A stretch of DNA of 37,226 nt from Clostridia bacterium (GTDB lineage: Bacteria; Bacillota; Clostridia; Christensenellales; Aristaeellaceae): the NCBI GenBank assembly GCA_017470095.1, contig JAFUFC010000177.1, forward strand, positions 1-37,226, in the 5' to 3' direction. Shown piece by piece: positions 2,472-36,018 of the stretch. The notes beneath the pieces were generated by a model. The model was not told the origin of the DNA. It saw nothing but the letters and a program-made list of their open reading frames with translations, and searched no databases. A program made the translations under genes and the position numbers. How positions within the stretch are numbered: position 1 is the stretch's first letter; every line of letters begins with the position of its first letter.

Positions 2472-2500
2472 TTGTCCATACTTGAGTGCGCTTCTAATAC
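2472..2500 (+). promoter_or_regulatory. Promoter reading into the structured RNA candidate
   Basis: TTGTCC (2472-2477), a 17-base spacer and TAATAC (2495-2500) form a plus-strand sigma-70-type promoter inside a region without plus-strand coding sequence. Transcription would start near 2507, three bases before the 5' arm of the closing helix of the RNA described next. Confidence 0.6.
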
Positions 2501-2506
2501 TATTTG

Positions 2507-2676
2507 ACGTCTAAAAGATTCGGGATGAATTTTTCGCTCTGGTTCAGCTGAATGAAGGGAGGCGTAACTGTGCTACGTTGACCGGAATGAAGCAACGCCA
2601 GAGCGGAAAAGGCAACCCAAGATTCAAGGTTTGAGACGGAGAATAGTGTATAAGATGCATCTTCCGATTTTAGAAA
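2507..2676 (+). ncRNA. Structured non-coding RNA candidate, possibly raiA-motif class
   Basis: The roughly 315-base gap between 2425 and 2739 is not empty. Its ends pair with each other: TCTAAAA, TCGG and GATG at 2510-2516, 2520-2523 and 2524-2527 match CATC, CCGA and TTTTAGA at 2658-2661, 2664-2667 and 2668-2674, giving 15 pairs with small bulges. Inside, CGCTCTGG (2535-2542) pairs with CCAGAGCG (2598-2605), and CGTTG (2576-2580) pairs with CAACG (2593-2597). The 8-mer GAATGAAG occurs twice, at 2550 and 2585. A promoter sits just upstream. The size and look recall the raiA motif of Firmicutes and Actinobacteria, but that identity is from memory and unverified. No raiA gene is in the window and no clear plus-strand terminator is visible. 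Confidence 0.62.
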
Positions 2677-2682
2677 CAGACT

Positions 2683-2720
2683 CTAAAAAAACCGCCCGGG
2701 GCTGTGCGGCCAGCGGGCGG
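2683..2720 (-). terminator. Terminator of the efp / CD1247-type operon
   Basis: On the minus strand a GC stem (CCGCCCG paired with CGGGCGG, inner loop rich in GC) is followed by seven T residues. It lies 20 bases past the stop of the acidic protein gene and converges with the 3' end of the structured RNA candidate. Confidence 0.8.
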
Positions 2721-5034: not shown

Positions 5035-5054
5035 CATATGAACAGTTGTTCAAA
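5035..5054 (+). promoter_or_regulatory. ArsR/SmtB-type operator (inverted repeat)
   Basis: The imperfect palindrome ATATGAACA-GT-TGTTCAAAT lies just downstream of the -10 box, over the expected transcription start. It matches the AT-rich TGAACA/TGTTCA half-sites bound by CzrA/SmtB/CadC repressors. The natural reading is that the sensor encoded next represses its own operon until zinc, cadmium or a similar metal releases it. Confidence 0.8.
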
Positions 5055-5070
5055 TGAAAGGATGATTAAA

Positions 5071-5436
5071 TTGAGCAACCTGATCCATCATCAGCCTGGG
5101 GAGGGGGAGGAGAACCTCCATCCCGACCTGATTTCCTCCGTGAACGCCGATATGCCCGATGAAGATCTGCTTTATGATCTGGCCGAGCTGTTCCGGATTT
5201 TTGCCGATAGCACGAGGATCAAGATCCTTTACGTTCTGTTCGAAGCGGAAATGTGCGTGTGCGATATTGCCGAGCTGTTGGGCATGACCCAAAGCGCCAT
5301 TTCCCATCAGCTGCGGCTGCTGAAGCAATCCAAGCTGGTGAAATTCCGCCGAGACGGCAAAACGGTTTATTATTCCCTGCCGGACGATCACGTGCGGACC
5401 ATCATCGGCATGGGTATGGAACATTTGTGTGAATAA
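5071..5436 (+). CDS. ArsR/SmtB-family metal-sensing repressor
   Basis: A 121-residue winged-helix repressor. The recognition region is [14 protein letters not shown] (residues 73-86) followed by the wing [12 protein letters not shown]. Two metal-site signatures are visible: EMCVCD with Cys62 and Cys64 (alpha-3 position, CadC-like), and Asp105, His107, His118 and Glu121, spaced like the alpha-5 zinc site of CzrA. The start chosen is TTG at 5071-5073, eight bases after AAAGGA. An in-frame ATG at 5038 would add 11 residues but lies at the transcription start inside the operator. The stop precedes the metal ATPase by 19 bases, so both form one autoregulated operon. The metal is probably Zn, Cd or Pb (inference). 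Confidence 0.92.
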
Positions 5437-5455
5437 AAAAGAGGGGGACGGAACC

Positions 5456-7459
5456 ATGAGCAAGTACTGCGCCTGCTGCCAGCATGATCACGACGAAGAA
5501 CACGATCATGAACATGAACAACGGCATGAATGCCATGACCACGAGCATCACAGCCATGATCATCATCATGAACATCATCACGATCACGGCCACGACCACG
5601 GCCACGATCACGGCGGGGAAGAAGAGGAGCGCAAGACCATGATCCTCCGCATAGCCGCCAGCGCCGTGCTCTTGATTGCGGGGCTTTTGCTGCCCATGCC
5701 CGAATGGGCGAAGATCGGCCTGTTCCTCGTTTCCTGGCTGGTGGTCGGCTGGAATGTGATTCTTTCCGCTATGAAAAATATCCTGCGGGGGCATGCCCTG
5801 GATGAAATGTTTCTGATGACGGTGGCGTCCGTGGGCGCGTTTTGCCTGGGGGATTACGCCGAGGGCGTGGCGGTGATGCTGCTGTACCAGATCGGTGAAT
5901 TTTTTCAGGATTACGCCGTCGATCAGAGCCGGGATTCCATTGCGGAACTGATGGACATTCGCCCGGACACCGCCGAGGTGGAGCGGAGGGGAAGCGTGGA
6001 AACCGTGCACCCGGAAACGGTGCAGGTGGGCGAAATTATTGTGGTGCGGCCTGGAGAAAAAATCCCGCTGGACGGCACGGTGGTCGAAGGGGTTTCTTCA
6101 TTAAATACGCTGGCTCTCACCGGCGAAGCCGCGCCCCGGGATGTGGGCGTTGGAGACGCGGTGATCAGCGGCTGCGTGAACATGCAGGGCGTGCTGCGTA
6201 TTGAAGCCACCCACGCCTATAACGATTCCACCGTGGCTCGGATCCTGGAACTGGTGGAAAACGCCGGTGACAACAAGTCGAAGGCCGATATATTTATTAC
6301 CCGTTTTGCCCGGATCTACACCCCTGTGGTGGTGGGCCTGGCCGTGCTGGTGGCCCTGATGCCGCCCCTGTTCTTTGGCGGCGCGTGGAAGGAATGGATC
6401 ACTTCAGCCCTCACCTTCCTGGTCATTTCCTGCCCCTGCGCGCTGGTCATTTCTGTGCCGCTGACCTTCTTCAGCGCCATTGGCGGTGCGTCAAAGCGAG
6501 GCATTCTGATCAAGGGCGCCAATTACCTGGAAACCCTGGCCCAGACGGGCGTGGCCGTATTTGATAAGACCGGCACCCTGACCAAAGGAGCCTTCGCGGT
6601 CAAGGATGTGCACCCGGAAAACAGCAATGCGCGGGAGCTTCTTTCCCTGGCCGCCGCCGCGGAGCAATTTAGCACCCATCCCATTGCCCAGGCTCTACGG
6701 GACGCCTGCTTGGATGAACTGCCCAAAGCGGAGGATACGGCCGAGATTGCCGGGCACGGCGTGTGCGCCACAATTCATGGAAGAAAAATTGCTGTGGGCA
6801 ACAGCAAGCTGATGCTCCGGGAAGGAGCGGCGTGCCCGAAGGTGGATGCTTCCGGTACGGTGGTGCATGTGGCGGCGGACGGCCGGTATTTAGGGTATAT
6901 CCTGATTGCTGATACGCTCAAAACCGGCTCAAAGGAGGCCATTCAGGGCCTGAAAAGCCTGGGCGTGGCCAAGACCGTCATGCTCACAGGCGACAGCGAA
7001 TCTGCCGCTGAGGAAGTGGCCGACACATTGAAACTGGATGAAATGCACGCCTTCTTGCTGCCTGACGGTAAGGTGAACCAGGTGGAGCGGCTGATGAACG
7101 AAAAGCCGGAGAAGGACGCCCTGATCTTCGTGGGCGACGGCATCAACGACGCGCCGGTGCTGGCCCGGGCCGACGTAGGTGTGGCCATGGGCGCCTTGGG
7201 CAGCGATGCCGCCATTGAAGCGGCGGATGTGGTGCTCATGGACGATGATCCCCGCAAGCTGCCCCAGGCTATCCGCATTGCTCGGGCCACCGTGCGTATC
7301 GTGCACCAAAATATCATTTTCTCCCTGGCCGTCAAGGTGATTGTCATGATCCTGGGCGTAATGCACCTGGCCCCCCTCTGGCTGGCCATCTTTGCCGACG
7401 TGGGCGTGTGCTTCCTGGCGATTCTCAACGCCATGCGGGCCATGCACGCGGCCAAGTGA
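5456..7459 (+). CDS. P1B-type heavy-metal-exporting ATPase (Zn/Cd/Pb group)
   Basis: An inner-membrane ATP-driven metal exporter of 667 residues. Catalytic motifs in order: TGE (222-224), CPC metal-site motif (326-328), phosphorylated Asp370 in DKTGT, HP pair (408-409) and GDGINDAP with Asp561 and Asp565. Lys627 and Asp648 are 21 residues apart, as are Lys693 and Asp714 of E. coli ZntA, marking the P1B-2 group that exports Zn, Cd and Pb. There is no ferredoxin-like HMA domain. Instead residues 1-54 carry 22 histidines plus Cys5, Cys7, Cys8 and Cys26. The ATG at 5456 follows GAGGGGG. Expression is expected to follow the upstream ArsR-type repressor. Confidence 0.95.
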
Positions 7460-35670: not shown

Positions 35671-36018
35671 GGGGGTGCACTGGTTTCGACGGGGATCGTC
35701 GGGGGTATGGTAAGCGAGCCGCGGACCCTGGCCGCGTAAAAACGGGGAACTTTAAAATGAACTGACAACAATCAGTACGCTTTCGCTGCCTAAGTGCGGC
35801 GCGTCGGCACTGAGCGCCTACGGCTCAGCCAACCGGCGTCATTGATGTAGGGAACGGGGCTGCGTAAGCTTTGCCGCAGCCCGGCATCATGAAGCTACTG
35901 AAGGCCCAAGCCCGGCAGGGGGCGTGAGCCAGAGGGAATGTGAAAACCTTGCCTGCGCTCGGAGAAAACGATACTGCTGAATCTTCGGACAGGGGTTCGA
36001 TTCCCCTCACCTCCACCA
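35671..36018 (+). ncRNA. ssrA: tmRNA (transfer-messenger RNA)
   Basis: The 5' end GGGGGTG (35671-35677) pairs with CACCTCC (36008-36014) before the encoded ACCA, and TGGTTTCGACGGGG and GGTTCGATTCC mark the tRNA-like domain. The tag frame ends GCT-TTC-GCT-GCC-TAA at 35779-35793. In frame upstream are TAC, CAG, AAT, AAC, GAC and ACT, preceded by TGA at 35758-35760, so the resume codon is ACT (35761) or GAC (35764). The appended peptide is Ala-(T)DNNQYAFAA. The AFAA end is a variant of the usual ALAA but still hydrophobic and Ala-Ala terminated. The length of 348 nt is typical. The gene contains four pseudoknot-sized regions, not modelled here. Confidence 0.97.

What the first reader, a model, noticed from the sequence alone, without database searches (positions are those of the whole stretch)
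2472..2690. Stand-alone structured RNA with its own promoter and a closing long-range helix
A gap with no plausible coding sequence carries a promoter (TTGTCC-17-TAATAC) and then a segment of about 170 bases whose two ends pair in 15 positions, with an 8-bp perfect helix and a 5-bp helix nested inside and a twice-used 8-mer GAATGAAG. This is much more organisation than expected by chance. It may belong to the raiA-motif class (conserved RNA of unknown function in Firmicutes), or be a new RNA. No raiA gene and no regulated downstream gene exist in cis; the downstream genes point the other way, so it should act in trans.
Basis: partly seen in the sequence, partly recalled or inferred. Interest (0 to 1): 0.75.

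Follow-up and report, generated by a model that had tools for sequence, protein, structure and literature searches.

The report
Dispersed mobile hairpin element, mover unknown
The supposed stand-alone RNA is one copy of a small jumping DNA hairpin that has spread through this bacterium's genome and its relatives; its folded shape has been kept by matching changes on both sides although much of its sequence has changed.

Summary
The structure is real, but it is not a unique RNA gene. Window 2498-2650 is one of at least 29 places in this genome holding a ~155-bp element (40 of 79 candidates scored). It has imperfect terminal inverted repeats and a 3-bp TNA duplication (TAA 2495-2497 and 2651-2653). 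Of 72 copies from this genus and related MAGs, 52 have identical flanks (shuffled mean 22, maximum 33). One relative holds 288 tips. Two long copies carry a passenger gene and matched TNA flanks. This is a MITE with cassette forms; its transposase was not found. A covariance model hits 21 of 297 genomes of the order, in 12 of 125 genera; in 19 deep matches 45 of 49 pairs have double changes. So pairing is conserved, as RNA or folded DNA. No Rfam family, raiA included, reaches its cut-off here. No transcript data were available.

The parts
2498..2650 (+). the element: 153-bp copy of a non-autonomous mobile hairpin (MITE); at least 29 places in the genome
   Evidence: fold z -6.2
2495..2497 (.). 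left target-site duplication TAA (TNA)
   Evidence: family-wide test (the window copy is not among its 72)
2651..2653 (.). right target-site duplication TAA, read with two extra bases in the right tip
2498..2516 (+). left arm (inverted repeat) TACTATTTGACGTCTAAAA
2630..2650 (+). right arm TTTGAGACGGAGAATAGTGTA; two extra bases near the tip compared with the family
2530..2542 (+). 5' strand of the inner helix TTTTTCGCTCTGG
2598..2610 (+). 3' strand of the inner helix CCAGAGCGGAAAA
2561..2579 (+). apical hairpin GGCGTAACTGTGCTACGTT (commonest form in the genus GGCGTAGCNGCGCTACGTT)
2550..2557 (+). GAATGAAG in the 5' side of the internal loop
2585..2592 (+). GAATGAAG in the 3' side of the internal loop

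Best explanation
Window 2498-2650 is a non-autonomous DNA transposon (a MITE). Shown: it is dispersed, has imperfect terminal inverted repeats with tips TACT...AGTA, and sits between identical TNA trinucleotides, as expected if a transposase in trans makes staggered 3-bp cuts at TNA. Shown: two longer copies with the same tips and matched TNA flanks carry a passenger gene between the left arm and the structured core, so the core belongs to the right end of a larger element. Inferred: short copies arose from such elements by internal deletion and were amplified in trans by a transposase not identified here. Shown: arms and inner helices change by matched substitutions, while loop and apical sequences change less. 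Inferred: selection acts on the folded single strand, either DNA extruded during transposition or RNA read through from neighbouring genes.
For: Own genome: 30 of 49 matching rows are to the element body, i.e. 29 places including the window, at 67-100% identity; the other 19 rows match only the adjacent module (lower bound: 40 of 79 candidates were scored). TNA flanks are identical in 52 of 72 copies with both tips found; shuffled mean 22.0, maximum 33 of 2000. In RUG10700 (G060) the tip pattern occurs 179+109 times against 0+0 for the reversed control; of the 26 facing pairs under 250 bp apart in the truncated listing, 24 show the same duplication; in G013, 5 of 8 do (both counted by hand). 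Among 10 divergent relatives with TACT...AGTA tips, 7 have identical flanks (by hand). Long forms: C76 (1386 bp with both flanks) with a SAM-methyltransferase (PF13649, E 9.3e-17), and C19 (1266 bp) with a 287-aa protein without a Pfam match, both with identical TNA flanks. The neighbouring gene is present in 26 other genomes of the genus; none of the flanks fetched (up to 1.5 kb, shorter at contig ends) has the core. 17 of 18 near-full own copies are not spanned by an ORF of 90 aa or more, though several overlap the end of one (rough ORF calls). Pairing: outer helix 43 cells with double changes against 13.5 in shuffles and at most 18 when slid; in 19 deep matches 238 cells against a shuffled mean of 69 and maximum of 89.
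Against: No transposase with these tips was found. PF01609 gave 0 hits in the own genome and was not tried elsewhere. PF13359 hit 4 of 29 genus genomes (3 over the cut-off), but a scan of those four loci found no TNATACT-type tip pair. 20 of 72 copies have unequal flanks; a few of these are tips that the script mis-called (L024, L069), left in the count. No exact empty site was obtained, because the flanks are not syntenic. Of 19 deep matches only 10 start TACT and 11 end AGTA. A core conserved more than the arms is unusual for a MITE.
Confidence: 0.88

Rival explanations
1. It is a stand-alone trans-acting structured RNA gene with its own promoter; the other copies would be paralogous RNA genes.
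For: Strong fold and covariation. In helices the plus strand keeps wobble pairs: 58 G-U against 32 A-C departures at Watson-Crick-majority pairs. The plus strand folds better than the minus strand, -61.1 against -41.8 kcal/mol.
Against: Copy number, TNA duplication and terminal repeats. No plus-strand promoter-like site was found by the scan. Sequence upstream of the arms differs from copy to copy. The wobble bias is not significant per pair (17 against 11, p 0.34).
Confidence: 0.06
2. A passive inverted repeat kept complementary only by template-switch correction of quasipalindromes, without selection on the fold.
For: Such correction is an established mutational process (recalled) and could produce matched changes in the arms.
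Against: It would also be expected to remove the internal loops and wobble pairs, which are kept: the U-G pair at columns 48/121 is in 47 of 58 copies, and loops persist in the divergent relatives.
Confidence: 0.12
3. A repeat spread by a large serine recombinase found next to one left end (contig C135).
For: A reading frame that I read as the C-terminus of such a recombinase (the Pfam scan meant to test this failed) lies in the cargo position beside a left tip at C135:467-485.
Against: A second copy at the end of C26, 89% identical over residues 16-128, is not followed by such a tip and by eye diverges before it, so it looks like a separate insertion.
Confidence: 0.02

Closest known systems
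Prokaryotic MITEs (review PMC10969869; abstract, its chapter 2 and the first part of its chapter 4 were read)
   Same: Under 500 bp, terminal inverted repeats, target duplication, many intergenic copies, stable foldback of the transcript, no transposase; QMITE families have tens of copies.
   Different: Here an inner core is recognisable across the order while the terminal arms vary and co-vary. No parent IS was found.
Mobile insertion cassettes, MIC/MICE (PMC5444012; passages read)
   Same: Terminal repeats enclosing a passenger gene without a transposase, as in C76 and C19.
   Different: Other tips, other cargo, and a structured core next to the right arm.
bcr1-type repeats of the Bacillus cereus group (search listing only; otherwise recalled)
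   Same: Repeats of about 155 bp, dispersed in intergenic regions, with conserved secondary structure and mobile-element traits (recalled).
   Different: Different host group; sequence and target site were not compared here.
raiA motif
   Same: Structured sequence in Firmicutes.
   Different: No raiA match here or at the 17 divergent loci scanned; repeated, with a target duplication.
IS110-family bridge RNA (recalled)
   Same: Structured sequence at one end of a mobile element, with two-sided internal loops.
   Different: IS110 elements lack terminal inverted repeats and TNA duplications (recalled); no transposase was found here.

Membership tests
MITE | short, non-coding, multi-copy | tested here: met
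   153 bp in the window; at least 29 places in the own genome
MITE | terminal inverted repeats | tested here: met
   imperfect repeats
MITE | target-site duplication | tested here: met
   52 of 72 identical TNA against a shuffled mean of 22; 24 of 26 in G060 and 5 of 8 in G013 (by hand)
MITE | related autonomous element supplying the transposase | tested here: inconclusive
   none found; only PF01609 (own genome) and PF13359 (genus) were tried, in draft MAGs
Mobile insertion cassette | same ends enclosing a passenger gene without a transposase, with target duplication | tested here: met
   C76 and C19; the C19 protein has no Pfam match, so its nature is not known
raiA motif | match to the Rfam covariance model | tested here: not met
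   no gathering match at the element; not among the four matches up to E = 10
raiA motif | stand-alone transcript or location near raiA | not testable with these tools
   no RNA data; I did not look for a raiA gene
IS5/IS1031 or PIF/Harbinger-type element | 3-bp TNA-like duplication (recalled) | tested here: met
IS5/IS1031 or PIF/Harbinger-type element | DDE transposase of that family with the same tips | tested here: inconclusive
   not found where looked for: PF01609 in the own genome, PF13359 in 29 genomes, tips at the four hits

The most novel reading that the evidence does not exclude
The conserved core is a functional folded nucleic acid of the transposon itself. It would be an RNA, or an extruded DNA hairpin, at the right end that the unknown transposition machinery recognises by shape. 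That would explain why the core stays recognisable across families, and perhaps in other orders, while the arms are free to change so long as they pair. It would be an undescribed transposon class in Clostridia with a structured nucleic-acid component, a TNA target and interchangeable passenger genes.
Probability: 0.22. Interest if true: 0.87.

Novelty: new variant of a known kind. Interest (0 to 1): 0.58.

Why it matters
It shows that a striking 'new RNA' call can be a transposon foldback. It also describes a MITE family without an Rfam match, whose covariance pattern is that of a structured RNA, that reaches 288 tips in one rumen MAG, and whose same ends enclose passenger genes. The question of what recognises the core becomes testable.

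Tried and rejected
raiA and other Rfam families: none over the cut-off at the element. Plasmid collection: only 30-base matches at E 3, unrelated. Viral contigs: 0 exact matches to one core pattern. Large serine recombinase as the mover: rejected, because its second copy lacks the tip. IS5-type transposases by PF01609 (own genome) and PF13359 (genus): none with these tips. Unpaired ends in G060 as long elements: in the 20 stretches fetched I saw no second tip at a distance that would make a long element; many are half-elements ending near the apical hairpin (by eye). Exact empty site at the window: not obtained, since the left-hand genes were found in none of the other loci. Tip scan over all loci held: C76 and C19 were clear long units; four other pairs were listed and not followed; C36 came from a second scan. 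Literature: no held paper contains the apical sequence or names RUG10700; searches listed general MITE, cassette or unrelated papers. I do not claim absence from print beyond these searches.

Counts and what they leave out. The one search count leaves out 5 of the 24 rows of A3: four opposite-strand matches of the same places and one near-identical ortholog; with all 24 rows the tool gave 289 cells against 90.0. A3 was fitted to the model, which leans towards the structure. A2 is the window copy plus 22 of the 28 copies picked; L024, L179, L125, L107 and two from L100 were left out (shortened, other arms, or a mis-called tip). In one search the genome labels of loci were partly set by hand from accession and contig length. 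In one search some copies with mis-called tips stayed in.

Full report
Observation. No ORF of 40 aa or more lies inside 2472-2690 (two mechanical ones overlap its right edge), and the stretch is strongly folded. The element proper, 2498-2650, folds at -61.1 kcal/mol with z -6.2; the reverse strand is weaker, -41.8 kcal/mol with z -4.5. No Rfam family reaches its gathering score there; the only gathering match in the window is a tmRNA at 35671-36018. With the threshold lowered to E = 10, four weak matches appear in 2417-2740, raiA not among them.

It is a repeat. A search of the window's own genome with 2500-2690 returned 49 rows (40 of 79 candidates were scored, so this is a lower bound). Thirty are to the element body, making 29 places with the window's own, and 19 are only to the module at its right. 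Aligning the copies shows where homology stops: an imperfect terminal inverted repeat, TACTATTTGACGTCTAAAA on the left and TTTTAGACGGAGAATAGTA on the right, enclosed by TNA. In the window the duplication is TAA at 2495-2497 and 2651-2653, with two extra bases in the right tip. Eighteen near-full copies align at 82% mean column identity.

It transposes. Over 72 distinct copies from this genus and the named MAG records with both tips found (the window copy is not among them), 52 have identical 3-bp flanks; shuffling the pairing gives 22.0 on average and at most 33. Twenty do not match; a few are mis-called tips, and the rest I put down to age, recombination between copies and assembly, without proof. 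In RUG10700 (G060) the tip pattern occurs 288 times, with none for the reversed control; of 26 facing pairs in the part of the list shown, 24 have the same duplication, and in G013 5 of 8 (by hand). The DNA query hits 18 of 28 other genomes of the genus and 0 of 31 outside it. The gene to the right of the window copy is present in 26 other genomes of the genus and no flank fetched has the core. The left-hand genes are not found at those loci, so a clean empty site is not shown.

Cargo forms. Two copies in this genome have the left tip more than 1 kb away: C19 (1266 bp with both flanks) and C76 (1386 bp), both with identical TNA flanks. Between left arm and core lies one gene reading towards the left arm: a 309-aa SAM-methyltransferase (PF13649, E 9.3e-17) in C76, and a 287-aa protein without a Pfam match at 1e-3 in C19, which looks acetyltransferase-like to my eye only. 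A third, C36, is about 0.5 kb with TTA flanks and contains the second repeat. Two more places, C109 and C175, share the cargo-type left flank of the core, but no left tip was found. The core therefore belongs to the right end of a larger element, and the MITE is the same ends with the middle missing.

Pairing is conserved. In 23 diverse copies the outer helix has double changes at 12 of 19 pairs and 43 cells, against a shuffled mean of 13.5 and at most 18 when slid; inner helices are 96.4% paired with 4 of 22 pairs doubly changed (8 cells against 2.7). A covariance model finds the element in 21 of 297 genomes of the order, own included, in 12 of 125 genera and 7 families. In a draw of 391 from the class, 5 genomes hit: the own, G061 of the same family, and 3 outside the order at E 2.4e-7, 5.5e-5 and 7.0e-5. 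One of these three, L344, has TACTAATCC...GGATTAGTA between TAA and TAA; E-values of this model are rough, so the others are open. On 19 deep matches 45 of 49 pairs have double changes and 238 cells do, against a shuffled mean of 69 and maximum of 89 and at most 62 when slid; the alignment was fitted to the model and so leans towards it. Of the 20 deep loci read, 14 keep CGTAGC in the apical hairpin and 6 do not (by eye). Of 19 deep matches 10 start TACT and 11 end AGTA; of 10 with both, 7 have identical TNA flanks (by hand). Others have different, sometimes longer arms without an evident TNA duplication, so the family is wider than the TNA group. One copy lies between genes that read as recA and ruvA in two species with 90.8% identical flanks (gene names are my reading), so some copies become fixed.

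RNA or DNA? Departures at Watson-Crick-majority pairs are 58 G-U against 32 A-C when counted once per genome, pair and type (binomial p 0.008, but not independent by descent); per pair it is 17 against 11, p 0.34; within 15 own copies 14 against 7. This leans to the plus strand being folded as RNA or single-stranded DNA, and is not decisive. No transcript data were available.

The -10 is the target duplication plus tip; the -35 overlaps a leftward -35 TGGACA. The 2510-2527/2658-2674 helix reaches into 2652-2684, one end of a second dispersed repeat of about 0.2 kb with ends AGAGTCTGTTTCTAAA...TTTAGAAACAGGCTCT. That repeat also touches a few other copies of the element, on either side, but in the alignment of the copies the flanks differ from one to the next.

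What is missing is the mover. TNA fits IS5/IS1031- or PIF/Harbinger-like transposases (recalled), but PF01609 is absent from the own genome, and the four PF13359 loci in the genus lack these tips. The genomes are drafts, and a number of contigs begin or end inside these repeats.

Verdict: a MITE with cassette forms, known in kind, unusual in that its core is conserved like a structured RNA.

Noticed in passing
window 2652-2684; L027, L029-L038: A second dispersed repeat with ends AGAGTCTGTTTCTAAA...TTTAGAAACAGGCTCT, about 0.2 kb, apparently flanked by TA; the window has one end only.
   Followed up: partly
window 35671-36018: tmRNA gene found by Rfam (162.7 bits) but not reported by ARAGORN.
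   Followed up: no
G060 stretches L258-L277: Many half-elements end near the apical hairpin and continue into unrelated sequence; either assembly joins at the palindrome or a real breakage point (by eye).
   Followed up: partly
L325 and L326 (about 2000-2207): The same divergent copy lies between genes that read as recA and ruvA in two species, with 90.8% identical flanks, so it is a shared, older insertion.
   Followed up: partly
L013, L039, L191 and loci: A terminator-like hairpin GGCGCACTT...GGTGGTGAGTAAGTGCGCC after the cargo genes also occurs in other genomes of the genus with no core in the 1.5 kb or so fetched around it.
   Followed up: partly
L189 1-485: A frame that reads as the C-terminus of a large serine recombinase lies beside a left tip at a contig end; a second copy at the end of C26 lacks the tip.
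   Followed up: partly
window 5429-7459: Reading frame that looks like a P-type metal ATPase with a very histidine-rich N-terminus, directly after a small ArsR-like frame at 5038-5436 (my reading; not scanned).
   Followed up: no
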